Below are positions 13,617 to 33,372 of a stretch of DNA of 64,000 nt, one piece after another. Source of the DNA: Conexibacter woesei Iso977N (GTDB lineage Bacteria > Actinomycetota > Thermoleophilia > Solirubrobacterales > Solirubrobacteraceae); the NCBI RefSeq assembly GCF_000424625.1, contig NZ_AUKG01000001.1, forward strand, positions 310,001-374,000, written 5' to 3'. Position 1 is the first letter of the stretch, and every line of letters starts with the position of its first letter. Made by a program: the position numbers and the translations under genes. The notes under the pieces are model-generated. The model did not search any database and was not told where the DNA came from. It saw only the letters and a program-made list of their open reading frames with translations.

Positions 13617-13932
13617 CGCTTGCCGCAGGCGCGGGCCAAACGCCGCTCGGATCGTTCCGCGTCGTCGGAACTTCGGCATTCGAACTGCCGCGGGTCGGAG
13701 GTTCTGTAAACGTGGATGTACCGGTGCTCGGCGACCCATCTCCCGGACGGATGCCGACCGGAGCCACGGCTCGTTTAGGGACTATCTCGGATGGGCTCCT
13801 TGGCGCCGGGGATCGGCTTGAAGAGCCCGCCCGAGCGGTTCTACCGTGCCGCCACTCGGTCGATGCGGGGCGCTCACCAAACGAAGGGTGCCGACGGGTC
13901 GATGTGGCTCTCCAAGCACGAAGGATCTGCAC
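13617..13932. other. Intergenic stretch, no gene seen
   Basis: Between the ROK gene and the Thr/Ser/Gly-rich membrane protein gene. No convincing coding sequence or strong hairpin was found. AAGGA at the 3' end is the ribosome binding site of the next gene. Confidence 0.4.
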
Positions 13933-15366
13933 ATGCTCATTGCCGAACCTCCCCGCCGGGATCGGGGAGACTTTCACGAAGAGCTCTCGCTCGGTGTGAC
14001 CGTAGACAACGTCTCGACCCGCGGGTTGCGGCGGGCGCTCAAGTTCGCCGCGATTGTCGTCGTCGCCGGCGCGTGCGGCGGGGCGGGCGCGCTGGTTGCG
14101 ACCGGAACGGTCGGCGTCTCGGTGCGCAACCGGAGCGCGGCGCAGGTGCCGGGCGCGGCACCCACCAGGAACCAGACGACCGGCGCCGACCGGCACGCCA
14201 CCCCCAAGCACGGCCACGGGACCGGCAGGGCCTCGTCGACGACGCCGAGGAGCAAGACGCACGACAAGCCGGGCTCCAAGCGCAGCTCGACGACGATCAA
14301 GCTCAGCGCCGGGACCTCCTGGAAGGGCGGCGCGAGCGGTGCGACCAAGACGAGCCCGGCGGCGGTGGCACCGGCGGCCGTGGCCCCGGGCACCGGGGCC
14401 AGCGGTACCAAGGCGAAGATCGTCCAGCACGCGGAGACGCACACGAGCGGGCGCAGGACCGGGGGCGGTTCCGGAACGACCTCGCGCCCGCCGAGCGGGT
14501 CGGGCACGGGGTCGGACACAAGTTCCGGAAAGGACGCCACGACGGACAGGGCCAGCAGGCCGAACTCCGGCGTCAGCCAGCAGGTGCACAGCGGCCGTGA
14601 CGCGACCGGGGCGCAGTCGGTCGACGGCACCGCTGGCGCGGCGAGCTCCGGCGGCACGGTCGTCCTGCACTCAGTGCAGCGCAAGGTGCCGGTCGCGCAT
14701 GCGGTCGCGCTCATTGCGAAGAAGAAGCCGGCCAAGCGCAAGTCGCACAAGGCCACCAAGAAGACGAAGAACAACAAGAAGAGGAAGCCGAAGCCGAAGG
14801 CCAGGCCGAAGGTCGGTCAGAGCGTCACCGCGGGCGGTGCGGCCACCACCGGTCAGACCGTCGGCTCAGGCTTCTCGGGCGCGGCGTCGACCGGCGGCAC
14901 TGTGCTCGGCCCTGGCGCCACCCAGGGCGGCGGTCCGACCGTCAGTGGCGGCGGGACGGCGGCGGGACACGACAACGCCCCGGTCACCGGCGCCAACGGC
15001 ACCACCGCCGGCAACGACAGCACCGCCATCGGTGGCGACAACGCCCCCGTCACCGGCGCCAGCGGGGCGACCGCCGGCAACGGCGGCACCGCGGTGGGCG
15101 GCGATGTGGGGTCGTCCTCCACGCAGGGCGCCGGCTCGCCGGCGGGGACGAACATCGGGTCAGGGGCGCAGTCGATCTCGACGGTGACCACGATCACCTC
15201 GACGACCACGACAACCTCGACCTCGTCGTCGGTCTCGAGTACCAGCACACAGACGGCCTCGACGGGGTCGGCGACGGTGACCGAGAGCACGAACGGCGGA
15301 TCGGCCACGTCAGGCAGCGTGACGCTCGGGGGCGGCAGCACGATCCTCATCGGCGTGCCGGCCTGA
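13933..15366 (+). CDS. Single-TM protein with long low-complexity Gly/Thr/Ser extracellular region
   Basis: 477 residues from ATG 13933, with AAGGA eight bases upstream; the frame extends 29 codons further up without a better start. A cytosolic segment of about 35 residues precedes one membrane helix (about 36-58, FAAIVVVAGACGGAGALVATG). The rest is disordered: Thr/Ser/Gly-rich, a very basic Lys block (about 270-300, KKKPAKRKSHKATKKTKNN), then two imperfect copies of a unit of about 24 residues containing DNAPVTGA and TAGN, and a Thr-run near 425-450. It looks like a wall-spanning or surface-decoration protein whose Lys block could bind teichoic acid or DNA; function is inferred from composition only. 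Confidence 0.6.
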   Translation: MLIAEPPRRDRGDFHEELSLGVTVDNVSTRGLRRALKFAAIVVVAGACGGAGALVATGTVGVSVRNRSAAQVPGAAPTRNQTTGADRHATPKHGHGTGRASSTTPRSKTHDKPGSKRSSTTIKLSAGTSWKGGASGATKTSPAAVAPAAVAPGTGASGTKAKIVQHAETHTSGRRTGGGSGTTSRPPSGSGTGSDTSSGKDATTDRASRPNSGVSQQVHSGRDATGAQSVDGTAGAASSGGTVVLHSVQRKVPVAHAVALIAKKKPAKRKSHKATKKTKNNKKRKPKPKARPKVGQSVTAGGAATTGQTVGSGFSGAASTGGTVLGPGATQGGGPTVSGGGTAAGHDNAPVTGANGTTAGNDSTAIGGDNAPVTGASGATAGNGGTAVGGDVGSSSTQGAGSPAGTNIGSGAQSISTVTTITSTTTTTSTSSSVSSTSTQTASTGSATVTESTNGGSATSGSVTLGGGSTILIGVPA

Positions 15367-15975: not shown

Positions 15976-17418
15976 TCAGCGCCGAGGCGACACCGGGACC
16001 GTGATGGTCCGCGGACGCGTGGTCCCGGCGCCGTCGGAGAGCTGAGCCCGGAGCCAGACCTTAGTCGTCTTGCCAGCGATCCTGCGACGGAGCGCCTTCT
16101 TGACGGGAAGCGCAACGCTCGCTGACCGATCGGAGCTCGCGCGTCCGAGCAGCGCGCCGCGCGGGCCTCCCAGCCGGGCTGTCACGTGTGCGGCCTGGCA
16201 GTCGCTGAGCCCGCGACAGGAGAGGGCGATCGTCAGGTTCGCTCCCGACCAGCGGGGCCGGCGCTGCAGGATGAGAGCGCAGGACTTCGGGTTCGACACG
16301 TCGGTGGCCGGGCCGTCGGCCGAGGCTCGGACGAGGAGGGCCTTGTCGCAGCGGTTGGCGATCGCCGCGACGTTCTGGCCGTCGAAGGCAAACCGGTCCT
16401 GGCCGTAGGCGCCGACGCCGCGCAGGACCGTGTGGGCCCGCGTGCCGGCGGTGTCGGTGACGAGAACTTCGCCGCCGGTGACCGCGTTCGCTCCGCGCGG
16501 GACGACCAGCGTTGCGACGCGACCGTGCGCCAGGCGCGCGCCGGACAATGTGCTGCCCGCTGGGATCGGCAGCACCCGGGGGACCGGCTGTGCCGCAGTC
16601 GCGACGACGACCGCGACGGCGTTTGGCGAGTTGGGATCGACGTGGCCGAAGAGCGCCAGTGTGCCGTCAGGGTCCAGCGTGAGGCGAACGTCACCGTTGA
16701 CCAGCGCCACCGGGACGCGCAAAAGCTCTCGGCCCGTGGCGTCGGCAACGACCGCGGCGCCTGGGCCGGCGCCGTCGGGAGCGCCCGTCGGCTCAAGCCA
16801 CGCGGTCAGCGACCCGGCGACCACCACGGGCGAGACCGCCGTCGGCGGCAGGGCCCGGCGGGTCTGGCTGGCCACGTCGAGCACCTCCAGCGGACCGCAG
16901 CCCATCCCTTCGGTCGCCACCTGATCGCCGTCGGCGGACGGGTACGGCAGGTCCCGCGGGAACACGCAGGCCGCCGAGACCGCGGCCAACGGGCCGCCCA
17001 GACGGCCCGCCCACGTCCGGCTGAGGTGCTGGCCGGTATCGCCGGATCGGCCACCGCCAAGGTCGAAGACGGTCGTCACCGTCGCCACCAGCGTCGTGGG
17101 AGTCGCAGCGACCGCCGCCAAGACCCCGCGGCCGGTGAAGGAAGCTCCGTCCGTGCGCGCAGGCTCCCCGGACAGCCGCGCCAGCACGGTGCTATGCGCG
17201 CCCGCGGCCGCCTCGATGCGCACCGGGCCGGCTCCCGACTGGCGGGACGGAACGTAGACCAACCGCGATCCGCCCAGAACCGGCCCCTGCGCGGGCGCGT
17301 AGGGCACGGTGCCCACGACAACAGCCCGCGCCGCGGCACTCGTCACCACCGACAGCCCGGCAACGAGCACCAGCATGACCCCGAGCGTACGGCCTCTCAT
17401 GCTGCGTGAAACGCGCAC
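15976..17418 (-). CDS. Secreted hypothetical protein, propeller-like
   Basis: 480 residues from GTG 17418, which has GAGGGG just upstream; ATG 17400 is the alternative. Frame extension upstream lies inside the neighbouring giant gene and is Arg-rich shadow. A signal peptide is followed by AVVVGTVPYAPAQGPVLGGSRLVYVP. Repeating units of about 40-50 residues with V-x-x-G-x-L-hydrophobic pattern (for example GRVATLVVPRGANAVTGGEVLVTDTAGT) suggest a beta-propeller. The C-terminal 100 residues (LTIALSCRGLSDCQAAHVTARL) resemble an Ig-like cap with one disulfide. It begins 44 bases after the giant protein gene and is probably cotranscribed. Confidence 0.65.
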   Translation of the reverse strand: MRVSRSMRGRTLGVMLVLVAGLSVVTSAAARAVVVGTVPYAPAQGPVLGGSRLVYVPSRQSGAGPVRIEAAAGAHSTVLARLSGEPARTDGASFTGRGVLAAVAATPTTLVATVTTVFDLGGGRSGDTGQHLSRTWAGRLGGPLAAVSAACVFPRDLPYPSADGDQVATEGMGCGPLEVLDVASQTRRALPPTAVSPVVVAGSLTAWLEPTGAPDGAGPGAAVVADATGRELLRVPVALVNGDVRLTLDPDGTLALFGHVDPNSPNAVAVVVATAAQPVPRVLPIPAGSTLSGARLAHGRVATLVVPRGANAVTGGEVLVTDTAGTRAHTVLRGVGAYGQDRFAFDGQNVAAIANRCDKALLVRASADGPATDVSNPKSCALILQRRPRWSGANLTIALSCRGLSDCQAAHVTARLGGPRGALLGRASSDRSASVALPVKKALRRRIAGKTTKVWLRAQLSDGAGTTRPRTITVPVSPRR

Positions 17419-17462
17419 CGACCCCTCGTGTTGCGATCGACGCACGACAGAACCTCGGCCGG

Positions 17463-20400
17463 TCAGCATCCTGATGCCAGCGCGAGGGGGCTCTTGCCGT
17501 TGTCGGTGGCCCATTGGCGCACGCGGCAGAAAGCCGAGCGCGACTGCGGATTGTTCCAGGCCGGCGACGTGTTCGGGCCGACGCCATACGGTCGTTGCCC
17601 GTTTGGCTCCAGCAGCCGCGAACTGCCGAGCACACCGGTGTCGAAAGCCAGGCCGTCCCTTGTCTGCGCGCCGGCCGTCACAGCCGCCAGCGTGGGATAC
17701 GCCTCGTTGAGTTGCCAGAGCGTGAACATGCGGGCGCCGTTCTGCGCCGCCCGGTTCAGCGCGCTGGCCAGGAACGTCGCGCGCTGCGACTCGCTCCACG
17801 CCACCGGGCTGTGGCCAGCCCTAGCCACCCTCGACCCGTAGGGCACGTTCCAGTAGCCGAATTCTGTGATGTAGAGACCGGGCTTGTTCCCGGTCGGCGT
17901 TCGGAGCTGGCCGTTGTGGTACAGGTCGCTCAGGACGTCCTGGAAATGCCCGATGTCGTAGATGCCGGTGCCCTTGCTGTTCGTGCGTGGGCTGGAGCGA
18001 TGCTGGTAGGCGTGCCACGCGACGCCGTGAGCCACGAGGTGCGGTGAGGTGTCCACGACGTCCCTGAGGAAGCCGAGGGTCGTCTGCGACGTCCGATGAG
18101 CGTGGTCGCCGTTCCTGCAGCTGACGGGCTTGACGGGACGGGTGATCTCGGACAGCTCGCCCAGGTACACGATGGCACCCTGGTTGGCCGTCTTGGCGGC
18201 GCTGTAGCCGGCCGAGTACAGATTGCGGTAGAGCGTGCTGGTGTCTTTTTGGACCCTGTCGCACGTTCCGGCTGTCAGGAACGTAGCCAGGTTCGGCTCG
18301 TTCCAAAGGGAGAACCGATGGACGCCGAGCGGGTAGAACTCCGTGACGACAGCGCTGACCAGGCTGGCGAACTGCGCCGGGTCAGGATTGACGTTATGCC
18401 TCGTCGGATAGTCGTAGTCGGCGCTTTCGATCGTCATGTACGGCGTCAGCCTGGCCCGCTGGGCGCAGAACACGGCGTTGCGCAGGCCCTGGCGGTAGAC
18501 GTCCCTGTCTGGGGCATCCATGTAGCGCGACCAGTAGACGTTGATGCGGATGTAGGTCGCACCGCCTTGGCGCATGCGGTCGAGCGCCAGTTGGGGCGAC
18601 GCCGGGTCCGTGGCCGCTGCCAGCTGCGGCATGGCGCAGCGCACCGCAGGATCAGGCTCGTTCTCATCCTGCCTTTGCAGCGTTCCTGAGGTCAGGTCGT
18701 CGTCCGACCAGGCGATGGAGAGACCAGCGCTGCCGCTGACCGCCTGCGCCGATGGCGCGACCAGGCTGTGGGACCCGGTGTCGCCGTCAGGGTCCTCGGG
18801 CGTGTCCGTGTCTGGGGTCCAGGTGGTGTCGCTGACCGGGTAGGGCGCGGTGCCGAGGTGCACCGTGACCTGCGTGCCGGAGCGGCCGACGGCGTCGGCG
18901 CGCTCGTCCCCGTCGATGTCGCCGGTGGCGAACCCGTTCGCCACCGGCAGCACCGTCGTTTTCGCGGACGCGCCGAAGGCGGTGCCGCTGGAGGGCAGGT
19001 AGCTGACGGTGCCCGACGAGTCGCGGACGAGCAGATCGGCGGTGTCGTCGCCGTCGGCGTCGTCGATGACGAGATCGCCGGAGGGCGCGGCGCCCCAGTC
19101 CTGCATCGTGCTGAACGTGTTGGCGTCTGATGCGCGGACCTCGACCCGGCCGGCCCGGACCAGCACGAGGTCGGCGAGACCGTCGCCCGTGACGTCGCCG
19201 AGTTGCGGCTGGCTGCCGGAAGGCAGGGAGGCCCAGGTGGCCAACTCGTCGAACACTCCGCCGTCGGCGTAAGCCGACTTGACCGTGCCGTCGCTCTGCA
19301 CCAGCAGGAGGTCGTCGGTCCCCGAGCCATCGACGTCAGCCGTCTCGAGCCTACCGGCGGGCGCGCCAGCTAGCCACACGGCGGGCGTCCCGAACGAGTC
19401 GCCGCTGGAGAGCGCGACGCGGACGTCAGCATCACCGGAGTTGCGCGCCACGAGGTCTTGGTCGCCGTCGCCGTCGACGTCTGCCAGCGCGACGTCAGAC
19501 GCGTCGACCCCGCTCCATGTCGACCATACCGCCCCCGTTTCGAAGCCGGCCGCGCCGTCGGACGCGAACACCTTGATCACGCCATCCGTGGAGACCGTCA
19601 CGAGATCGTCCGTGCCACTGCCGTCGACGTCACCGACGAGAGCTACATCCGTAGCCCCGATGGTCGTGGTGATACGAGAGACCGTCACGGTCCAACTCGC
19701 AGAAACCGAGGTGTTGCCCGCAAGATCCTGAGCCACTTCTCTGAAGGTATGTGCCCCGTCCGTCAGCGTCGTCTCGTCGAGATCGACCTCTTGACTGACG
19801 CCTTGCGGGCACGTGCGCGGCGGGCTGTCAGGTGTGGAGCAGGTGGATGCCGCTGCGATTTGAACCGGTCCGCCGTCGATTTCGAGCGCGACGCGGCGAA
19901 TGCCAGAGATGCGTCCGCTAGATCCGGCGAGGTCAGTGGCGCTCAAGGTCACGCTCGTCGTTCCCTCACCGTCAAGGGAGCCATTCGCCAAGTCATGGAG
20001 CGCCCCGCTTGGCGCGCTGTCGGGCCGCGTGGTGTCCCAGTTGGCGTCGGATGCCGCCCAGGCCGGTGACGCGGGCAGAGCCGAGGTCCTTGGGCTGGCG
20101 GTGGCGACATGCTGGTACTTGTCGTAGGTGTAGGTCGTCTGGCCGTCGTCGGTGGGTGTGGCGGTGGCGTTGCCGGCGGGGTCGGTGACGATGGTGGTGC
20201 GCGTGGTGGTGTTGTAGGTGTAGGTGGTGGTGGGGTTCTTGGTGGTGTCGGTCGGGTGGGCGGCGTCGAGGAGGCGGACGACCTTGGTCACGCGGGGGTT
20301 GCCGATCGCCGGGGTCTCCCAGGTGATGAGGGTCTGGCGCCCGGAGGGGTCGGTGATCCTGGTGAGCAGGTTGTTGGTGTAGGCGTACTGGGTGGTACCG

Positions 20401-22556
20401 CCGCCGGTGCCGGGTGCGGTGGCGGAGTTCAGGACGGTGCCGTCGCTGCCGCCGTAGTTGTAGGTCCAGGTGTGACTGCCGTCGCCGGTGCTGGCGGCCA
20501 TGCCGTTTGAGTTGTTGGGCTGGGTGATCGCGCGGCTGGCGTTGGCGGTGATCGTCGTGCTGCCGCTGGTCTGCACGGTGTTGACGACGTTTCCGTGGCT
20601 GTCGACGACGGCGCGCTGCTGGCCGGTGTCGTAGAACAGGTAGCTGGTGTTGGTGGTGGTGTCTGTCAGCCGGTAGGGCAGGTTGGAGAAGCCGCTGGAT
20701 GAGCAGCCGGTCCACGACGTCTTGCACAGGGTCAGGTTCGGCGCCCCGGCGGGCGAGTTGTAGGAGTTGCCGGCGCCGGGGGTGAAGCGGAAGGACGACC
20801 CGCCGGGTGAGACCCAGTTGACCGAGCCGTCGTCTTCGGGCCAGAGGCTGGAGATCGTCGCGCCGTCATACCAACCGCGGCCGTAGTGGCCCCAGCCGGA
20901 GGCCATCGCCGAGCGCCAGGAGCGCGTGACGCGCACGTCGTCAGCCCCCGACGCCGAAAGTGAGGCGTCGCGCTCGGTGTAGGTCAGGCCGCCGTTTGAG
21001 ACGTTGACCGCCAGCTGGCTGTGGTCCGACAGCGCCTGGCTGTCGTTGGTGTAGGGGCCGTCGAGACCGCGCGGGTCCTCCCAGTCGATGTCGACCGCCG
21101 GCCACTGGGCCTGGTTGCCCTCGGTCGAGACGAAGGAGTAGACCTGCTGGGGTGCGCCGGCATCGGCGGCCAGCTGGATGCCGTTGTCGATGCTGTCGCC
21201 CCAGGCCCAGCTCTGGATCGCTTCGGTCGGGACGTCGAAGTAGTACCAGTAGCCCTGGTGGCCGACCGACGTGGCGATCCCCGGGGTGCCGGTGGTGTCG
21301 CCGCCCGGCGTGGTCCAGCTCGTGCTTCCGTCGCGGGTGTTCCACGTCGCCGCGCCGGTCCACCCCGCGCCCATCGCGCGGACGCGCAGGTTGGAGCTCG
21401 ACTGCGCCGCCGTGCCCGGATCGAACAGCGACAGCGTCGCGTCGTAGATGACCGCGTCCTGCGGGATCGCCGAGCGCACGTTGAAGTACAAGTTGCTGCG
21501 GTAGTTGTGCGACGCGTCATGGCCGACCCTCAGCGTCGGATCGGCGCACAGGCTCGTGGCCGCCGACGACCCGTCAGCCAGCGTGCAGTCCAGCTGCGCG
21601 CCATGGAAACGCAGACCGGAATCCGACCAGTACACGTCGGGATCGACGGTGACCGGGAAGGTGCGGTCCGGGTTGGTCAGCCAGTCGTGGTCGACGGCGA
21701 GCGTCAGCGTCCAGCCGTCGCCATCCGCCGCCGCGGCGATGTGCAGCGTCGTTGCATGCGAGACCGCCGCGGGCTGCGCGCTGTCCCACACGACGGGCGC
21801 CCCGAGGCGGAACGCGACCGCGCCATCTCCGTTGCGGAAGGTGATCGAACCGTCGGCCTCGTCGGTCGGCGACAGCCCGGCACCGGCCCTGATCCTGTAG
21901 GTGAACACCGAGCGCGCCGAGGCGTCAGCCAGCGTCAGCTGCTCACGAAGGCCGCCATTGATCGCCTGATACTCGGCATCGACCCCGTCGGCCACGCCGT
22001 CATACGTCGCATGATCGCCATCGACCGACGCCGTGGCGTCGGCGCCCTGCATCTGGATCGACAGCGAATCGCCGTCGTGGCTGAACCTGAACGGGTCGTC
22101 GAGGCTGCTCGGGATCTGCGCATCGCCATCGTTGGCACGCCGGTGCACGTAGCCGGAGTCACCGGAGACCAACGAGTTGTCGATCTCATGCCAGTCGCCG
22201 CCGTCCTGGTAGTGGACGGGCTCCGGATAGACGCGCGTCGTCAAGCTCCCGTCATCGCGCCGGAACGTCTTGGACTGCTCGGTGCGCAACCCGACGACCT
22301 CATCGTCGCCGGCCGGAGCCTGCTCCTGGGTTGGCGCGGCGACCGTCGGCGTATCCGCAGCCGACGACGAGTCGGCGTTCGTGGTCGACCCTGCGACCAA
22401 CGCCACCAACAACGCTCCTGCCGCGGCCCACAGAGAGACGAGCACCACCCAGCGCAACGAACGAACGCCCACGAAAAACCCCACCAGAATCGAGAAATGG
22501 ACCGACGCCGCGCAGGAGGAGAGCAAGCCGCGCAGCCGCTCAGCACCCAACATCAA
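17463..22556 (-). CDS. 1697-residue surface protein: DNRLRE/RHS-like modules, FG-GAP repeats and C-terminal GH-like barrel
   Basis: An N-terminal membrane helix (about 33-58) leads into a secreted chain. About 300-500: DNRLRE-type region. About 510-830: RHS/YD-type beta modules (YTYDKYQH, YAYTNNLLTRITDPSGRQ). About 850-960: Ig-like unit with a Cys pair. About 965-1240: six FG-GAP/VCBS Ca-binding repeats (GDVDGSGTDDL, ADVDGDGDQDL, GDVTGDGLADL and others). The last 370 residues form a glycoside-hydrolase clan-A-like barrel, with Glu1420 in LWNEPN as probable acid/base and Glu1565 in ITEFGYW as probable nucleophile. RHS proteins usually end in a toxin; here an enzyme-like barrel takes that place. 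No immunity gene is obvious. Confidence 0.75.
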   Translation of the reverse strand: MMLGAERLRGLLSSCAASVHFSILVGFFVGVRSLRWVVLVSLWAAAGALLVALVAGSTTNADSSSAADTPTVAAPTQEQAPAGDDEVVGLRTEQSKTFRRDDGSLTTRVYPEPVHYQDGGDWHEIDNSLVSGDSGYVHRRANDGDAQIPSSLDDPFRFSHDGDSLSIQMQGADATASVDGDHATYDGVADGVDAEYQAINGGLREQLTLADASARSVFTYRIRAGAGLSPTDEADGSITFRNGDGAVAFRLGAPVVWDSAQPAAVSHATTLHIAAAADGDGWTLTLAVDHDWLTNPDRTFPVTVDPDVYWSDSGLRFHGAQLDCTLADGSSAATSLCADPTLRVGHDASHNYRSNLYFNVRSAIPQDAVIYDATLSLFDPGTAAQSSSNLRVRAMGAGWTGAATWNTRDGSTSWTTPGGDTTGTPGIATSVGHQGYWYYFDVPTEAIQSWAWGDSIDNGIQLAADAGAPQQVYSFVSTEGNQAQWPAVDIDWEDPRGLDGPYTNDSQALSDHSQLAVNVSNGGLTYTERDASLSASGADDVRVTRSWRSAMASGWGHYGRGWYDGATISSLWPEDDGSVNWVSPGGSSFRFTPGAGNSYNSPAGAPNLTLCKTSWTGCSSSGFSNLPYRLTDTTTNTSYLFYDTGQQRAVVDSHGNVVNTVQTSGSTTITANASRAITQPNNSNGMAASTGDGSHTWTYNYGGSDGTVLNSATAPGTGGGTTQYAYTNNLLTRITDPSGRQTLITWETPAIGNPRVTKVVRLLDAAHPTDTTKNPTTTYTYNTTTRTTIVTDPAGNATATPTDDGQTTYTYDKYQHVATASPRTSALPASPAWAASDANWDTTRPDSAPSGALHDLANGSLDGEGTTSVTLSATDLAGSSGRISGIRRVALEIDGGPVQIAAASTCSTPDSPPRTCPQGVSQEVDLDETTLTDGAHTFREVAQDLAGNTSVSASWTVTVSRITTTIGATDVALVGDVDGSGTDDLVTVSTDGVIKVFASDGAAGFETGAVWSTWSGVDASDVALADVDGDGDQDLVARNSGDADVRVALSSGDSFGTPAVWLAGAPAGRLETADVDGSGTDDLLLVQSDGTVKSAYADGGVFDELATWASLPSGSQPQLGDVTGDGLADLVLVRAGRVEVRASDANTFSTMQDWGAAPSGDLVIDDADGDDTADLLVRDSSGTVSYLPSSGTAFGASAKTTVLPVANGFATGDIDGDERADAVGRSGTQVTVHLGTAPYPVSDTTWTPDTDTPEDPDGDTGSHSLVAPSAQAVSGSAGLSIAWSDDDLTSGTLQRQDENEPDPAVRCAMPQLAAATDPASPQLALDRMRQGGATYIRINVYWSRYMDAPDRDVYRQGLRNAVFCAQRARLTPYMTIESADYDYPTRHNVNPDPAQFASLVSAVVTEFYPLGVHRFSLWNEPNLATFLTAGTCDRVQKDTSTLYRNLYSAGYSAAKTANQGAIVYLGELSEITRPVKPVSCRNGDHAHRTSQTTLGFLRDVVDTSPHLVAHGVAWHAYQHRSSPRTNSKGTGIYDIGHFQDVLSDLYHNGQLRTPTGNKPGLYITEFGYWNVPYGSRVARAGHSPVAWSESQRATFLASALNRAAQNGARMFTLWQLNEAYPTLAAVTAGAQTRDGLAFDTGVLGSSRLLEPNGQRPYGVGPNTSPAWNNPQSRSAFCRVRQWATDNGKSPLALASGC

Positions 22557-26963: not shown

Positions 26964-29900
26964 ATGGGAACGCTTGAGCAACGGTCGCTGGTGTTCGACC
27001 AGGGCACGTCCGACAAGTTCTGGACGATTCGCGTGGACGGGTCGCAGCACACAGTGCACTACGGGCGCACCGGCACCGCGGGGCAGGTCAAGACGAAGGA
27101 CTTCCCGTCGGCCGACAAGGCGGCGAGCGACGCCGAGCGCCTGATCGCGGAGAAGCTGCGCAAGGGCTACCGCGACGCGACGAGCGCGACGCCGATGCCT
27201 GCGCCGGAACCCGAGCCCGCGCCCGCGCCGCAACCCGCACCGCAACCCGCACCGGCGTCCGACGCCGCGGTCGCCGCCGGCGCGTCCCCGTCCCCGGCGC
27301 CCGCACTCGACGACCGGCCGCCGCTGGACCTCCGCCCGCACGAGTGGTCGCTGGCCACCTGGCGCCCGCTGCACGATCCGCCCGCCGACGAGCCCGTGCC
27401 GTTCGACCCCAGGCGCCTGCGCGCAGCGATGAGGGCCGCCACCAGCGAGTGGGCGCTGCGCTGGCCCGCGTCGCCGATCCCCTTCCCCATCACGCGCGAG
27501 GAGGCCGCCTACTGGCTCCGCGCCGGCCAGCCGGTGCGCTGGGGCGACACCGCACTGAGGCGCCACGCCGCGGTGATCGACCAGCCGCCGGACCTCACGG
27601 CCGATGCGGCGATCGCGCTGGCCCGCACGAGCCAGCTCCCCGGCGGCGAGGCGATGGCGCCGCTGGTGACGCTGCTCGGCCCGGAGCGAACGCTCGACCT
27701 GCTCCTGGCCCCGCGCGCGAAGCCCGGCAACGAGAGCCCGGTGCTCGGCCTGTTTGCGGGCGTGCGCGCCTACCTGCTGCCCGCCCTGTCGAGGGCCGAC
27801 CGCGACCGCCTGCGCGAGCGCGCGCGCACGTGGCTGACCGACGAGCTGCGCGACCCGGGCTACCAGCTCGGCGATGCCGCGCTGCTCGCGGCGCAGGTCG
27901 GCGGGCTCGACGCGCTTGTCCAGGAGCTGTGCGACCGCTGGCCCGACGGCTGGTTCGCGGACTCGGGCAGCGCCGGCTCCTGGGCGACGATCGCCTTCGG
28001 CGTCGGCTCCGCGCAGGCCTTCGAGGACGTGGTGGAGCGCACCGGCATGCGCTTCGCCGAGGAGCATGAGATCGCCGGGTTCCTCGCCCACACCGAGCTG
28101 CGGCGGCTGGACCGGCTCGTCGCGTCGGCGTTGCGCCAGGAGTCCCGGGACGCGGCCGCGACCGCCATCGGCGCGTTCGCCGCCCGCGTCCACGCGCTCG
28201 AGGCCGCACCCGGCATGCTCGAGCTGATGGTCGGCTCGCGGGCGCCGTCGGTCGCGCGCGACTGGCTCAACGACCATCCGCGCCAGACCGCGCGCGGGCT
28301 CGCGCCGCTGCTCTCCCGCTCCGGCCGCCTCGCCGACGCGGCGGTCGACCAGCTCAAGCGCATGGCCCGCGGCCCGTCGCGACCCGTGCTGGAGGAGCTG
28401 GCCGCCGAGCTGGCGCCCGGCGCCGAGCGCGACCGCCTCCAGGACCGCGTCCTGGACGCCGCCCTGCCCGCCGGCCCCGAGCTGGACGACGCACCACCGT
28501 GGCTGGCCGACGCCGAAGCGCGCCTGGCCAGGACCGCGCTCCCCGCCTGGCTGGACGTCACCGCCCTCCCGCCGCTGGAGGTCGACGGCGGCAGCCTCGG
28601 CGCCCGGCACCTGCCGACCGTCCTGCGGATTCTGCGCGCGAGCGCCGACGACCCCGACCCGGCGATCGGCCCGCTGCGCGCGGCGATCGGCCCGGGCAGC
28701 CCCGCGGCAGAGGAGCTCGCCTGGTCGCTGTTCGACGCGTGGTCGGCCGCCGACGCGCCGACCAGGGACAGGTGGGCGCTCGTCGCGATGGGCCATCTCG
28801 GCGGCGACCGTTGCGCGCTGCGTCTCGCGCCGCTCATCCGCGCCTGGCCGGGCGAGAGCCAGCACAGGCGCGCCGTCGTCGGCCTCGGCGTGCTGCGCGG
28901 CATCGGCACCGACGTCGCGCTGCTGCAGCTGAACGGCATCGCGCAGAGGCTGAGGTTCAAGGCCCTGCAGGCGCGGGCGCGCGAGGCGATGGAGGAGATC
29001 GCCCGGGACCGCGGCATGACCAAGAGCGAGCTCGAGGACCGGATCGTCCCCGACTGCGGCCTGGACGAGCACGGCAGGCGGGTCTTCGACTTCGGCCCGC
29101 GCCAGTTCGAGTTCGTGCTCGGCCCCGGGATGAAGCCGATGCTCCGCGACGGCACCGGGAAGCTGCGGACCTCGCCACCGAAGCCCGGCGTCAGGGACGA
29201 CGCGGCGCTGGCGACGGCAGCCGTCGCCGACTGGAAGGTCGTGCGCAGGACGGTGGCCGACGTGGCCAAGGTCCAGGGCGCGCGTCTGGAGCAGGCGATG
29301 GTCGGGGGCCGCCGCTGGCCTGTCGCCGACTTCGAGGCCCTGATCGTCCGCCACCCGCTGCAGCGCCACATCGTCGCGCCGCTGGTGCTCGGGACCTACG
29401 CGGCCGACGGCGCGCTGACGGCCACCTTCCGGCTGACCGACGAGGGCGACTACGCCGATGCCGGCGACGAGCCGTTCGCCCTGCCCGGCGACGCCCGGGT
29501 CGGCATCGTTCACCCGATGGCGCTCGACGACGCCACCCGTGCCGCGTGGGGCGAGGTGCTCGCCGACTACGAGCTGGTGCCGCCGTTCCCGCAGCTGGGA
29601 CGGCCCGTCTACGAGCTCGAGCCCGAGGACCGCGACGCGCGCGTCCTCACGCGCTTCAAGGCCTATGAGATCGGGCCGGGCGCCCTGGTGCGGATCCTCG
29701 AGAACCTGGACTGGACCCGCGGCGTGCCACAGGACGCCGGGATGTTCCACCTGCACAGCAAGTACTTCCCGGACGCCGACTGCACGGCGGTCGTCCAGTA
29801 CGAGGGCGGCATCCCCGCCGGCTACATCGTCGAGGCCGAGGACCAGCGCGTGACCATGGTGTACGTGATCTCCGGGCGCGGCGACGCGTGGGACTTCGGC

Positions 29901-30023
29901 TACGGCCTCGACGACGGCCGCCGCGACAGACGCCAGCTCCTGCGCTGGGGCGACGTCGAACCGGTGATGCGCAGCGAGGTCCTCTCCGACGTTCAGCACC
30001 TGGTCGCGAAGGCCAAGCCGTGA
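26964..30023 (+). CDS. WGR-DUF4132 protein (YehI/MolR-like), first gene of five-gene MoxR-VWA operon
   Basis: 1019 residues; ATG 26964 is preceded by GGGGGAG. An N-terminal WGR domain (about 5-75: FWTIRVDGSQHTVHYGRTGTAGQ) is joined by a Pro/Ala linker (about 78-118) to a long HEAT-like helical region. A C-terminal DUF4132 domain follows (about 790-1000: AAWGEVLADYELVPPFPQLGRPVYELEP...GMFHLHSKYFPDADCTAVVQYEGGIPAGYI). The WGR fold binds nucleic acid in PARP proteins, but its role in this family is unknown. This order of domains is that of E. coli YehI/MolR. Its stop overlaps the ATPase GTG by four bases, so it is made with the machine and may act as client adaptor or effector. Confidence 0.85.
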   Translation: MGTLEQRSLVFDQGTSDKFWTIRVDGSQHTVHYGRTGTAGQVKTKDFPSADKAASDAERLIAEKLRKGYRDATSATPMPAPEPEPAPAPQPAPQPAPASDAAVAAGASPSPAPALDDRPPLDLRPHEWSLATWRPLHDPPADEPVPFDPRRLRAAMRAATSEWALRWPASPIPFPITREEAAYWLRAGQPVRWGDTALRRHAAVIDQPPDLTADAAIALARTSQLPGGEAMAPLVTLLGPERTLDLLLAPRAKPGNESPVLGLFAGVRAYLLPALSRADRDRLRERARTWLTDELRDPGYQLGDAALLAAQVGGLDALVQELCDRWPDGWFADSGSAGSWATIAFGVGSAQAFEDVVERTGMRFAEEHEIAGFLAHTELRRLDRLVASALRQESRDAAATAIGAFAARVHALEAAPGMLELMVGSRAPSVARDWLNDHPRQTARGLAPLLSRSGRLADAAVDQLKRMARGPSRPVLEELAAELAPGAERDRLQDRVLDAALPAGPELDDAPPWLADAEARLARTALPAWLDVTALPPLEVDGGSLGARHLPTVLRILRASADDPDPAIGPLRAAIGPGSPAAEELAWSLFDAWSAADAPTRDRWALVAMGHLGGDRCALRLAPLIRAWPGESQHRRAVVGLGVLRGIGTDVALLQLNGIAQRLRFKALQARAREAMEEIARDRGMTKSELEDRIVPDCGLDEHGRRVFDFGPRQFEFVLGPGMKPMLRDGTGKLRTSPPKPGVRDDAALATAAVADWKVVRRTVADVAKVQGARLEQAMVGGRRWPVADFEALIVRHPLQRHIVAPLVLGTYAADGALTATFRLTDEGDYADAGDEPFALPGDARVGIVHPMALDDATRAAWGEVLADYELVPPFPQLGRPVYELEPEDRDARVLTRFKAYEIGPGALVRILENLDWTRGVPQDAGMFHLHSKYFPDADCTAVVQYEGGIPAGYIVEAEDQRVTMVYVISGRGDAWDFGYGLDDGRRDRRQLLRWGDVEPVMRSEVLSDVQHLVAKAKP

Positions 30024-31114
30024 GCGCGCCCGAGAGCCGCCAGCGGCCGCCGGCCGAGGAGCTGCACGCCGAGGAGCTCGCGCGCCTGGTCGCGCTCGAC
30101 GCCGACGTCCAGCGCCCGCCCGGCTGGCGGATGACCCCGGCCTCGGCCGTGCGCTTCATCGCCGGCGACGCGAAGCTCGGGATCGCGCCGAAGTTCGTGG
30201 GCGAGCGCGCGTTCGTCGAGCGCTGCGTGGTCGCGCTGGCGACCAACCGAGGGTTGATGCTCATCGGCCGGCCGGGCACGGCCAAGAGCCTGCTGTCGGA
30301 GCTGCTGGCCGCCGCGGTCAGCGGCGACTCGACGCTGACGATCCAGGGCAGCGCCGCGACCACCGACGACGCGATCAAGTACTCGTGGAACTACGCGCTG
30401 CTGCTGGCCGAGGGGCCGTCGGAGCGCTCCCTGGTTCCCGCGCCTCTGCACACCGGCATGCGCGAGGGCCGGATCGTGCGCTTCGAGGAGATCACGCGCT
30501 GCCCGATCGAGGTCCAGGACGCGTTGCTCTCGGTCCTCTCCGATCGCGTGCTCGTCGTGCCCGAGCTGGACGACGAGCAGCGCACGGTCTTCGCCGCCCA
30601 CGGCTTCAACCTGATCGCCACGGCCAACACGCGCGACCGCGGGACCAACGAGATGAGCGCCGCGCTCAAGCGCCGCTTCAACTTCGAGACGGTGCTCCCG
30701 ATCGCCGACCTCCAGGACGAGATGGCGCTCGTGCAGCGCGAAACCGCGCAGATGCTCGCGCGCGTCGGCATCGCGGCGCGGCTGGACGACGACCTCACCG
30801 AGGTGCTCGTCACGACGTTCGCCGAGCTGCGGACGGGCAGGACCGCGGGCGACAAGGCGATCGAGCCGCTGGCCAGCGCGATGTCGACGGCCGAGGCCGT
30901 GTCGGTCGGCTACGCGGCCTGCGTGCAGGCGCACTACTTCGGCGGCGGGCGCGCGGCGGGTGCGGGCGACGTCGCCCAGCACCTGATCGGCACGGCGATC
31001 AAGGACGACCCCGACGACGTCAAGAAGCTGCGCCACTACGTCGAGCAGGAGGTCCGCGGCCGCAAGGGCAAGGCCTGGAAGGACCTCTACGCGGCGCGCG
31101 GCCATCTGCGGTGA
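30020..31114 (+). CDS. MoxR-type AAA+ ATPase (YehL-like)
   Basis: 364 residues from GTG 30020, which overlaps the previous TGA. Walker A GRPGTAKS (83-90), Walker B-like IVRFEEI with the catalytic Glu, sensor-1 LIATANTRDRGTNE, and an arginine finger in AALKRRFNFE. A C-terminal helical lid spans about 245-364. Length and features match MoxR-family ATPases, which with VWA partners remodel or activate metalloproteins and other client proteins; the closest architectural match is E. coli YehL. It sits between DUF4132 and DUF5682 genes with exact four-base overlaps at both ends, implying balanced synthesis. Confidence 0.9.
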   Translation: MSAPESRQRPPAEELHAEELARLVALDADVQRPPGWRMTPASAVRFIAGDAKLGIAPKFVGERAFVERCVVALATNRGLMLIGRPGTAKSLLSELLAAAVSGDSTLTIQGSAATTDDAIKYSWNYALLLAEGPSERSLVPAPLHTGMREGRIVRFEEITRCPIEVQDALLSVLSDRVLVVPELDDEQRTVFAAHGFNLIATANTRDRGTNEMSAALKRRFNFETVLPIADLQDEMALVQRETAQMLARVGIAARLDDDLTEVLVTTFAELRTGRTAGDKAIEPLASAMSTAEAVSVGYAACVQAHYFGGGRAAGAGDVAQHLIGTAIKDDPDDVKKLRHYVEQEVRGRKGKAWKDLYAARGHLR

Positions 31115-33372
31115 ACCCGCGCGTCCACCTCTTCGGCGTCCGGCACCACAGCCCGCAGGCGGCGCGCATGGTCCTCCGGCTGATCGAGGAGGTCGCTCCC
31201 GCGGCGGTGCTCGTCGAGGGACCGGCCGACTTCCAGGCCCAGGTCGGCGAGCTGGGCCTGGACCACCGCGCGCCGGTGGCGATCTACAGCTCGGTCGCGC
31301 GCGACGGTCAGCGGCGCGCCGCGTACTACCCGTTGTGCGAGTACTCGCCGGAGTGGCAGGCGATCCGGGCCGGGCTGCGAGCGGGCGTTGTTGTAGGCCT
31401 CATCGACCTGCCGTGGGTCGCGCTCGTCGACGCCGAGGCGCCCGAGGAGCGCAATCTCTACGGCGACCAGGAGCTGCACCGCTCGCCGGCGCTGCCCGCG
31501 CTACTGGAGCGCCTCGGCGTCGATGGCTTCGACGACGCCTGGGACCTGCTGGTCGAGGTCGACCCGGACCTCACGCTCGCCGACTACCGCGCGCGGGTCG
31601 ACGCGCTCTGCCGGGAGCTGCGCGGCCCCGAGGAGCATGTTGGTGTGGAAGACGCGCGGCGCGAGCGCTTCATGGCCGCGCAGGTGCGCAGGACGCTCGC
31701 GACGGTCGACGGGCCGGTCGTGGTCGTCACCGGTGGCTTCCACACGGAGGGGCTGCGGCGGCTGCTGCACGATGACGCGCAGGCCGCGCCGGCCGAGGCG
31801 CTGCCCGAGCCGCGCGCCGGCGACGGGCGGGTCGTCGCGTTGACGCCCTACTCCTACGCGGCGCTCGACGCGCTGACCGGCTACGCGGCGGGGATGCCGA
31901 ACCCCGGCTTCTACGACCTGGTCTGGCGGGCGCGGACCACCGACGCCGGCGCGGATGAGCGACCGGCCGACGTCGCGCTGGCGCGCATCGTCGCGCGCCT
32001 GCGCGAGCTCGACCAGCCCGTCAGCCCCGCCGACCTGATCGGGCTGCGCGTCACCGCCGAGGGGCTGGCGGCGCTGCGCGGGCACGCCGAGGTCTGGCGC
32101 CGGGACCTCGTCGACGGCATCCGCGGCGCGCTGGTCAAGGACGAGCTCGAGGCCGGGATCGTGCACCCGATGCTCGCGGCGTGCTTCGAGGTCCTGCGCG
32201 GCGACGCGCTCGGGAGGCTGGCCGACGAGGCGCGGCGCCCGCCGTTCGTCACCGACCTGGAGGAGCGCCTACGGGCGCTCGACCTGGAGCCCGCGGCGCA
32301 GCGCCGCGGCGTCACGCTCGACCTCCGGATCCCGCGCGAGCTGGAGCGCAGCCGCCTCCTGCACGGGCTGGCGGTGCTCGCGCTGCCGGGCTTCGAGGCC
32401 GCCGACGTCGTCGCCCGGCCGCAGGACGGCGCGCTGCAGGAGCGCTGGACGGTGTGGCGCGCCGTGGGCCTGCCGGGCGCGGCGATCGAGGCCGCGGCCT
32501 ACGGCGCCAGCGTCCCGGCCGCCGTCGCCGGCCGCCTGCTGGAGCTGGCTGGCCGGCTCGCCCACGACGCGGCGGGCGCGGCCCGGCTGCTGCAGGACGC
32601 GCTGCTGGCCGGCGCCGGCGACGTCGCCGGGCCGCTCGTCGCCCGGGTCGGTGAGCTGATCGGCGCCGATCCTGATGTCGCGTCGGTCGGCGACGCCGCC
32701 GCGTCGCTGCTGCACCTGTTCCGCTATGAGTCGGTGCTCGGCACGGCCGGCGACGCCGGTGCGGGCGCGCTGCTGGCGGCCGCCTATGAGCGGTTGTTGT
32801 GGTTGTTGGATCCGGGCGGCGGCGCGGCGCCCGCCGAGGACGCCGGCGTCGAGGCGATCGCCCAGGCGATCGAGGTCCTGGAGCGCGCGGGCGACGCGCT
32901 CGGGCTCGGCCGCGAGGAGCTGCTCGGCGTCCTGGAGCGCCTCGACGCCGACGACGCGGCGGCGCCCGGCCTGCGCGGCGCGGCGCTCGGCGCACGCTGG
33001 GTGCTGGACGCGGTCGACCCCGAGGCGCTGGACGCCGCGCCGCTGCGCTTCGCCGATCCGGCCGCACTGGGCGACTTCTTGTATGGGTTGCTGCGCCTCG
33101 CCCGCGAGGCGGCCCAGCGCCGGCCGGAGCTGCTGCACGCGATCGACCGCGTGCTCGTCGGGTGGGAGCCCGCGGCGTTCTTGGAGGCCTTGCCCGCGCT
33201 GCGCCGGGCGTTCGGCGCGCTGGCGCCGCGCGAGAAGGACCGGGCGGCGCGGATCGTCCTGGGCGAGGCGCTGGAGCGCGTCGCCGACCCGGCCGAGGCC
33301 GAGGCGCTCGCGCGCCTGGAGGCGTCGCTGGCCGGCGTCCTGAGTCGCTTCGGGCTGCGGGGTGCGGCATGA
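31111..33372 (+). CDS. DUF5682 family protein (YehM-like)
   Basis: 753 residues from GTG 31111, close in length to E. coli YehM. The N-terminus HLFGVRHHSPQAARMVLRLIEEVAPAAVLVEGPADF resembles the GxxH...EGP signature of the TraB/ChaN/erythromycin-esterase-like fold, and VVTGGFHTEGLRRLL (about 208-222) supplies another conserved His. That suggests a hydrolase-like or metal-binding N-terminal domain (about 1-260). The C-terminal 400 residues are Ala/Leu-rich helical repeats with an LARIVARLREL-like pattern. Function has not been established for the family. Overlaps of four bases at both ends place it in the MoxR-VWA operon. Confidence 0.85.
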   Translation: MNPRVHLFGVRHHSPQAARMVLRLIEEVAPAAVLVEGPADFQAQVGELGLDHRAPVAIYSSVARDGQRRAAYYPLCEYSPEWQAIRAGLRAGVVVGLIDLPWVALVDAEAPEERNLYGDQELHRSPALPALLERLGVDGFDDAWDLLVEVDPDLTLADYRARVDALCRELRGPEEHVGVEDARRERFMAAQVRRTLATVDGPVVVVTGGFHTEGLRRLLHDDAQAAPAEALPEPRAGDGRVVALTPYSYAALDALTGYAAGMPNPGFYDLVWRARTTDAGADERPADVALARIVARLRELDQPVSPADLIGLRVTAEGLAALRGHAEVWRRDLVDGIRGALVKDELEAGIVHPMLAACFEVLRGDALGRLADEARRPPFVTDLEERLRALDLEPAAQRRGVTLDLRIPRELERSRLLHGLAVLALPGFEAADVVARPQDGALQERWTVWRAVGLPGAAIEAAAYGASVPAAVAGRLLELAGRLAHDAAGAARLLQDALLAGAGDVAGPLVARVGELIGADPDVASVGDAAASLLHLFRYESVLGTAGDAGAGALLAAAYERLLWLLDPGGGAAPAEDAGVEAIAQAIEVLERAGDALGLGREELLGVLERLDADDAAAPGLRGAALGARWVLDAVDPEALDAAPLRFADPAALGDFLYGLLRLAREAAQRRPELLHAIDRVLVGWEPAAFLEALPALRRAFGALAPREKDRAARIVLGEALERVADPAEAEALARLEASLAGVLSRFGLRGAA

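What the first reader, a model, noticed from the sequence alone, without database searches (positions are those of the whole stretch)
17463..22556. RHS/FG-GAP scaffold ending in a glycoside-hydrolase-like barrel
One chain carries DNRLRE, YD-type, Ig-like and six Ca-binding FG-GAP units, then a barrel with both catalytic Glu residues in place (1420 and 1565). In polymorphic RHS systems the C-terminus is a toxin. A carbohydrase there suggests a surface enzyme for attacking neighbouring polysaccharide or peptidoglycan, or for self-wall remodelling.
Basis: partly seen in the sequence, partly recalled or inferred. Interest (0 to 1): 0.6.

Follow-up and report, generated by a model that had tools for sequence, protein, structure and literature searches.

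The report
RHS-type scaffold with exchangeable sugar-cutting tip
A soil-type actinobacterium carries a very large exported protein whose front end resembles a bacterial weapon scaffold, but whose tip is a sugar-chain-cutting enzyme; in relatives the tip is swapped for proteases or toxins, and the gene directly behind it encodes an exported partner that may protect the owner.

Summary
The minus-strand ORF at 17463-22556 is a Sec-type exported protein with a DNRLRE domain, a short YD/DUF6531 stretch, an Ig-like link, FG-GAP repeats and a C-terminal (beta/alpha)8 barrel. The barrel model is clan GH-A, closest to GH39 (BcGH39 Z 26.3, PslG Z 24.8). Glu1420 and Glu1565 sit after strands 4 and 7 and are invariant in 37 aligned barrels.

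The same genome has four scaffold paralogues with other ends. Across Solirubrobacterales, 18 of 37 retrieved scaffold proteins keep an RHS core plus a short tip. Fourteen complete ones have no core; six of those end in hydrolase domains (three GH barrels, one matrixin, two trypsin-like).

New here: the gene overlaps (ATGCTGA) a downstream gene for an exported protein, probably a beta-propeller. All four FG-GAP+GH39 genes found overlap an exported next gene, an arrangement typical of toxin-immunity pairs.

Best reading: a cage-less RHS derivative that displays a glycan hydrolase outside the cell, with an exported cognate partner. Fold, active site and tip exchange are shown computationally. Antagonism, substrate and immunity are inferred. 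Peptidoglycan is an unlikely target.

The parts
17463..22556 (-). Whole gene for the scaffold + GH39-like tip protein (1697 codons from TTG 22556; likely real start GTG near 22472)
   Evidence: Open frame and translation; start judged from paralogue alignment
22383..22466 (-). N-terminal hydrophobic export signal / membrane segment (residues about 31-58)
   Evidence: Hydropathy: hydrophobic segments only within residues 10-58; no LPXTG-like motif
20757..22304 (-). Scaffold N-terminal region used as profile A2 (residues 85-600)
   Evidence: Alignment of 13 relatives; found in 49 of 232 genomes of the order at E<=1e-10
21087..21587 (-). DNRLRE domain (residues 324-490)
   Evidence: NCBIfam NF033679 E 2.9e-19
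20007..21008 (-). DUF6531/YD-type stub (residues 517-850), too short for a closed RHS cocoon (inference); no RHS-associated core
   Evidence: PF20148 20.9 bits, below cut-off; TIGR03696 absent but present in paralogues
19653..20006 (-). Ig-like link (residues 851-968), the point after which paralogues diverge; GC3 0.695 against 0.86-0.93 in the other parts
   Evidence: Identity to L076 60-70% over residues 751-950, then 32%
18807..19652 (-). FG-GAP repeats (residues 969-1250), six calcium-type loops by eye
   Evidence: PF13517 five stretches, E 4.8e-14
17466..18746 (-). GH39-like (beta/alpha)8 barrel (residues 1271-1697)
   Evidence: AF2 pTM 0.85; 5jvk Z 26.3, PslG Z 24.8; profile vs PslG 9.6e-18
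18297..18299 (-). Codon of Glu1420, predicted acid/base (NEPN, after strand 4)
   Evidence: Invariant in 37 of 37; position in model
17862..17864 (-). Codon of Glu1565, predicted nucleophile (TEFG, strand 7)
   Evidence: Invariant in 37 of 37; position in model
17463..17469 (-). Seven-base overlap ATGCTGA: start of the next gene within the end of this one
   Evidence: Read from sequence
15976..17469 (-). Overlapping downstream gene, 497 aa, exported, probable beta-propeller: candidate cognate partner/immunity protein
   Evidence: Hydrophobic N-terminus; AF2 all-beta, pLDDT 64.8, pTM 0.65; Foldseek top hits propeller proteins such as TolB, low TM; homologue overlaps the FG-GAP+barrel gene of G203

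Best explanation
An exported, multi-domain surface or secreted protein that began as an RHS/YD-type polymorphic scaffold but has lost the RHS cage. It now carries a GH39-like retaining beta-glycosidase at its tip on a calcium-binding FG-GAP stalk. It probably cuts an extracellular polysaccharide (matrix, capsule or envelope glycan) of nearby cells. The tip is an exchangeable module: relatives of the same scaffold carry cage+toxin ends or other hydrolases. The overlapping downstream gene makes an exported protein, probably a beta-propeller, that most likely binds the enzyme or shields the producer's own glycan. Shown computationally: anatomy, fold, active site, tip exchange, gene overlap in 4 of 4 FG-GAP+barrel loci. 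Inferred: secretion, activity, substrate, target, role of the partner.
For: Clan-A barrel with both Glu. Four N-terminal paralogues in the same genome at 55, 46, 34 and 30% identity with other ends. N-terminal tree: the window and two own paralogues form a 100/99 clade with three different ends (GH, unknown, RHS core+tip); its next neighbours carry trypsin-like and matrixin ends. 14 of 37 retrieved scaffold proteins are complete and core-less; 6 of the 14 end in hydrolase domains. Overlap with an exported-type next gene in window, G203, and both Siliceabacter loci. Comparable coupling for other core-less hydrolase tips: L135 GH (-4, exported) and L085 matrixin (-4, lipoprotein-like); and for L170, class level (+31, lipoprotein-like). 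The two DUF6973 tips have mutually similar small next genes. Cytosol-type next genes behind L079, L076 and L127 (SUFU).
Against: No activity data. Partners of the two Siliceabacter genes and of L135 are not detectably related to the window partner, and the propeller model is of modest confidence. Both Siliceabacter loci contain in-frame stops and one partner a frameshift: decay or draft errors. Three hydrolase-tipped genes (L087, L125, L088) show no coupled exported neighbour. A partner homologue in G109 is not next to a barrel gene, nor is the one in G231. G188 has the same partner behind a free secreted barrel, which fits an enzyme-accessory pair as well as immunity. Short gene overlaps are common in GC-rich genomes (general knowledge; no background rate was measured here beyond).
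Confidence: 0.5

Rival explanations
1. A cell-attached digestive exoenzyme: the scaffold only displays a GH39 enzyme for using plant, fungal or dead-cell polysaccharide, and the propeller is a binding or processing partner. No conflict is involved.
For: Barrel relatives are common as free secreted enzymes: 107 of 201 genomes have a match. G188 has a free barrel plus the same kind of partner. G090 has a free barrel with FG-GAP repeats behind it (L028). Three of six hydrolase tips lack a coupled neighbour.
Against: Recurrent swapping with cage+toxin ends on one scaffold and gene overlap with a rare, fast-changing partner (5 of 232 genomes) are more typical of effector systems.
Confidence: 0.3
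2. Self-matrix remodelling: the enzyme trims the producer's own exopolysaccharide or envelope glycan, as proposed for PslG and Psl in Pseudomonas, and the partner restrains it.
For: Nearest solved relative by sequence profile is PslG, a hydrolase tied to its own producer's biofilm polysaccharide (abstract starts).
Against: FG-GAP+barrel module in only 3 of 232 genomes of the order, so not a conserved housekeeping function; no polysaccharide-synthesis gene among the ten window ORFs scanned, though most window ORFs were not scanned.
Confidence: 0.13
3. A decaying or chance fusion without function.
For: The related loci in G039 are broken; the Ig link has deviant GC3.
Against: 5.1 kb open, both catalytic residues kept, GC3 0.86 in the barrel, module conserved with its neighbour in G203.
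Confidence: 0.07

Closest known systems
Glycoside hydrolase family 39, PslG (Pseudomonas aeruginosa) and BcGH39 (5jvk)
   Same: Clan-A barrel; acid/base Glu in NEPN and nucleophile Glu in TE(F/W)G at the same places (PslG Glu165/Glu276, passages of PMC11912335)
   Different: About 15-17% identity; fused to a 1270-residue scaffold; substrate unknown
RHS/YD polymorphic toxins (WapA-like, Rhs effectors, Tc toxins)
   Same: Sec-type N-terminus, DNRLRE, DUF6531/YD start, exchangeable C-terminus, overlapping downstream gene
   Different: No RHS-associated core, hence no cocoon or autoprotease; the tip is a large folded exoenzyme rather than a small caged toxin; the partner is exported
Carbohydrate-acting polymorphic toxins listed by Zhang et al. 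2012 (PMC3482391)
   Same: Polymorphic tips that act on glycans exist: a glucosaminidase and an aldo-keto reductase-type domain (passages); an immunity family with signal peptide and lipobox, Imm65, exists
   Different: No 'glycosyl hydrolase', 'matrixin', 'trypsin' or 'FG-GAP' in the text held (first 300,000 characters; term counts 0)
Free secreted GH39-like proteins of Solirubrobacterales
   Same: Same barrel family (A3 profile)
   Different: Typically about 360-560 aa, no scaffold; among the other barrel rows none has an overlapping exported neighbour that I recognised as propeller-like (by eye)

Membership tests
GH39 (clan GH-A) | (beta/alpha)8 barrel of clan GH-A | tested here: met
   AF2 pTM 0.85, eight strands; GH39 and GH1 structures at Z 22-26
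GH39 (clan GH-A) | Acid/base Glu after strand 4 and nucleophile Glu at strand 7 | tested here: met
   E150/E295 of the domain, invariant in 37 of 37 rows
GH39 (clan GH-A) | Sequence assignment to GH39 rather than another clan-A family | tested here: inconclusive
   PslG and GH39 xylosidases rank first by profile, but the single sequence gives E 0.036 and no Pfam model passes its cut-off; CAZy itself was not available
GH39 (clan GH-A) | Retaining beta-glycosidase activity | not testable with these tools
   Needs an assay
RHS polymorphic toxin | RHS-associated core with autoprotease motif | tested here: not met
   TIGR03696 absent in the window protein; present in L077 8.9e-16, L078, L083
RHS polymorphic toxin | Conserved N-terminus with exchangeable C-terminus | tested here: met
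RHS polymorphic toxin | Cognate immunity gene directly downstream | tested here: inconclusive
   Overlapping exported gene present; protection not tested
RHS polymorphic toxin | Toxicity to non-immune cells | not testable with these tools
   Needs a competition assay
FG-GAP repeat protein | Several FG-GAP units over the curated cut-off | tested here: met
   PF13517 53.1 bits against 26.9, five stretches

The most novel reading that the evidence does not exclude
A class of cage-less RHS effectors in Solirubrobacterales, possibly wider in Actinomycetota: the scaffold has dropped the RHS cocoon and exchanges whole exoenzymes (glycosidases, matrixins, serine proteases), each with an exported cognate protector. 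These would be polymorphic weapons aimed at the neighbour's extracellular matrix instead of its cytoplasm, and beta-propeller proteins would be a new type of exported immunity.
Probability: 0.3. Interest if true: 0.78.

Novelty: new variant of a known kind. Interest (0 to 1): 0.55.

Why it matters
RHS proteins are understood as cages that hide a small toxin until delivery. Here the same front end carries large folded hydrolases with no cage, and next genes that look exported. If the partners are immunity proteins, the place where the partner works (cytosol or outside) would report where the tip acts. That would open a testable class of matrix-directed competition in poorly studied soil and rock actinobacteria. 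It would also give a source of glycan hydrolases with built-in inhibitors.

Tried and rejected
Peptidoglycan hydrolase: no lysozyme- or amidase-like hit among the top rows; nearest solved folds are GH39 and GH1.

Recoding in Candidatus Siliceabacter: the three in-frame stops are TGA, TAG and TAA, so there is no single reassigned codon; decay or draft error is simpler.

The downstream propeller as a general RHS partner: rejected, 2 of 232 genomes by single-sequence search, 5 of 232 by profile, and a homologue in G109 stands apart from any barrel. The partners of the two G039 genes are not detectably related to it, so 'propeller' is claimed only for the window family.

Phylum survey: 26 of 396 genomes have the scaffold at E<=1e-40. 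From 18 fetched stretches I saw a metallopeptidase-like tip (L170), an SGNH-like tip (L175, by motif only, recalled), and multihaem-cytochrome-like ends (L172, L173, by CxxCH motifs, recalled). These are noted, not counted.

Rows left out of the count of 37 scaffold proteins: from the best-scoring rows, G128:C85 (cut by the contig end) and G073 (stop inside) were not fetched, and all weaker rows were not fetched. L136 was fetched but has no frame of 250 aa with the match. Four of the 37 are cut by the end of the contig or fetched stretch (L048, L084, L091, L122) and one, L124, continues as YD repeats in the next frame and holds an X; none of these five is among the 14 core-less ones. L117, also cut, is counted as core-bearing.

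The window start TTG 22556: kept as the ORF limit only.

The search for related loci with the single barrel found no relative; with alignment A1 it found 22 loci, of which only the two Siliceabacter ones are close.

Papers: search listings only; passages only for PMC3482391, PMC11912335, PMC8765631. The one search that joined YD/RHS repeat, FG-GAP and glycoside hydrolase found one paper with three of the four terms, not with FG-GAP; I did not read it. The papers were seen as listings except PMC3482391, so absence from print is not claimed.

Full report
WHAT IS THERE. The finding is one minus-strand gene, 17463-22556. It begins with the only hydrophobic stretch of the protein, ending at about residue 58, so it is most likely Sec-exported and either cut or membrane-anchored; there is no LPXTG-like motif. 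Then follow a beta-rich region, a DNRLRE domain (E 2.9e-19), a DUF6531/YD stretch (below cut-off), an Ig-like link, FG-GAP repeats (E 4.8e-14) and the barrel. Two refinements: the real start is probably the GTG near 22472, and the YD part is a stub of about 330 residues without the RHS-associated core.

WHERE IT COMES FROM. The genome (G000, 5.7 Mb) groups at family level with genomes that carry contigs of Candidatus Siliceabacter maunaloa (G039; same 8105- and 27981-base contigs) and Paraconexibacter antarcticus (G164; same 5,138,448-base contig). It is therefore a member of Solirubrobacterales, Actinomycetota (inference from these matches).

THE BARREL. The single sequence barely touches known families (PslG E 0.036; Cellulase E 0.14). 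An alignment of 37 relatives ties it to GH39: PslG 9.6e-18, then GH39 xylosidases and GH1 enzymes; both glutamate motifs align to PslG. The AlphaFold2 model (37 rows; mean pLDDT 77, pTM 0.85) has eight barrel strands, with Glu150 of the domain after strand 4 and Glu295 at strand 7. In full-length numbering these are 1420 and 1565. Foldseek ranks three PslG entries first; VIA-align 2 ranks the GH39 entry 5jvk (Z 26.3, rmsd 3.4, 294 aligned) and PslG (Z 24.8, rmsd 3.2, 299 aligned) at the top, with GH1 enzymes within a few units. I call it GH39-like, not a proven GH39.

THE TIP VARIES. In the own genome four other genes carry the same N-terminal scaffold at 55, 46, 34 and 30% identity. L077 and L078 have the complete RHS core (TIGR03696 E 8.9e-16 and 2.8e-15) and a short tip; L079 is a 3322-aa RHS protein with a weak Ntox24 match below cut-off; L076 has no core and a small tip of unknown kind. 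Identity between the window protein and L076 is 60-70% over residues 751-950 and then falls to 32% over residues 951-1000; against L077 it falls after residue 800. In the middle, residues 551-750, identity to both is only about 30-50%. So the exchange point lies at the end of the Ig link, and this link has the lowest GC3 of the gene (0.695 against 0.86-0.93).

Across the order (all 232 genomes held) the scaffold profile finds 49 genomes at E<=1e-10. I took the 37 best gene products, omissions listed under Tried and rejected. A core model built from seven of them hits 18. Four are cut before their end and one (L124) is a broken frame. Fourteen are complete and core-less. Their ends are: GH39-like barrel (window); two further clan-A-type barrels, L088 and L135 (profile-profile E 9.4e-8 and 8.1e-8 to the barrel alignment; a trypsin-like tip used as control gives 0.22); matrixin (L085, E 5.7e-7); trypsin-like (L125 over cut-off; L087 below cut-off with E 0.007, Rv1815-type E 5.4e-8 below cut-off); DUF6973 (L092, L130); Vps62-like (L118 over cut-off; L134 AHH nuclease over cut-off plus a weak Vps62 match); and four unknown (L076, L120, L123, L129). 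In the N-terminal tree (40 rows, which include phylum-level relatives) the window, L076 and L077 form a 100/99 clade, joined by L087 at 99/87 and L085 at 100/96. Five nearest neighbours thus carry five different ends. Many other branches of this tree are poorly supported (12 of 37 inner branches open).

THE MODULE MOVES WITHOUT THE SCAFFOLD. A profile of FG-GAP+barrel finds the two parts together in 3 of 232 genomes: the window genome, G203 (same genus) and G039 with two copies; all other matches listed at E<=1e-30 cover the barrel region only. In G039 one copy follows a different N-terminus with Ig repeats and no RHS signature. Both G039 copies are interrupted by stops (TGA and TAG; TAA). In G203 the N-terminus is lost at the contig end; the remaining 745 residues are 29% identical over 721.

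THE NEXT GENE. The stop codon of the window gene lies inside the start of the next one (ATGCTGA). That gene encodes 497 aa with an N-terminal hydrophobic helix. Its model is all-beta but of modest confidence (pLDDT 64.8, pTM 0.65), and its Foldseek hits are overwhelmingly propeller proteins, TolB among them, with low TM-scores. All four FG-GAP+barrel genes overlap an exported-type next gene: window by 7 bases, G203 by 10, the two G039 copies by 4. The G203 partner is a homologue of the window partner (profile E 1.5e-10); the two G039 partners are not detectably related to it, and the one beside the contig-65 barrel is itself frameshifted. In G188 a homologue lies 10 bases behind a free barrel gene. 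In a listing of 80 barrel frames in the loci at hand, module members included (not a clean gene set; 53 with any next frame in range), overlapping next frames with a hydrophobic start outside the module were two tandem barrels (L034, L149) and two that look like membrane proteins (L035, L104) (judged by eye).

The same logic appears in other scaffold genes: L135 (GH) and L085 (matrixin) overlap exported-type next genes by 4 bases. The two DUF6973 genes have similar small next genes (E 8e-8). L079, L076 and L127 have next genes without a signal, the last a SUFU protein (E 3.3e-16), SUFU being a known immunity fold (PMC3482391 passages). Against this, L087, L125 and L088 have no such neighbour.

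INTERPRETATION. RHS effectors hold a toxin inside a cocoon sealed by the core/autoprotease (PMC8765631 passages). A protein without core and with only a YD stub cannot do this (inference); its tip is folded and exposed, suited to act outside the cell. Tip exchange plus an overlapping, rare, exported partner is what one expects of an effector that acts on extracellular targets and needs an exported protector. An exported immunity family is on record (Imm65, passages). A nutritional or self-remodelling enzyme remains possible. I put the effector reading at 0.5.

NOVELTY. The parts are known kinds; the combination is a new variant: a cage-less RHS-derived scaffold exchanging whole exoenzymes with exported partners. 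In the text of Zhang et al. 2012 that is held, 'glycosyl hydrolase', 'trypsin', 'matrixin' and 'FG-GAP' do not occur, though that paper lists 23 peptidase clades and two carbohydrate-acting domains as toxins and mentions surface proteins with glycohydrolases next to ZU5 domains.

Noticed in passing
window 26964-30020 (+) and 30385-33369 (+): Neighbouring large genes with WGR+DUF4132 (E 5.6e-16, 3.5e-47) and DUF5682 (E 2.9e-113); from memory such sets occur with MoxR/vWA genes of possible conflict systems.
   Followed up: no
L077, L078, L090, L094 C-termini: Several RHS-core relatives end in short Gly/Ala-rich hydrophobic tips, some with cysteines, which look like pore-forming or glycine-zipper segments.
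   Followed up: no
L028 (G090:C1:5854823-5858614): A free barrel protein with FG-GAP repeats behind the barrel instead of in front: the two modules pair in either order.
   Followed up: partly
L092 7780-8190 and L130 5528-5884: DUF6973-tipped scaffold genes with mutually similar small next genes: a candidate toxin-immunity pair for DUF6973.
   Followed up: partly
L172, L173 (phylum-level relatives): Same kind of N-terminal scaffold ending in many CxxCH motifs, that is multihaem-cytochrome-like ends.
   Followed up: no
L082 7274-9379 (G000:C5): A 702-aa open frame of the same genome with FG-GAP repeats and no barrel.
   Followed up: no
window 13846-15366 (+): 506-aa low-complexity Ser/Thr/Gly-rich frame with repeats and a hydrophobic stretch, no Pfam match.
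   Followed up: no
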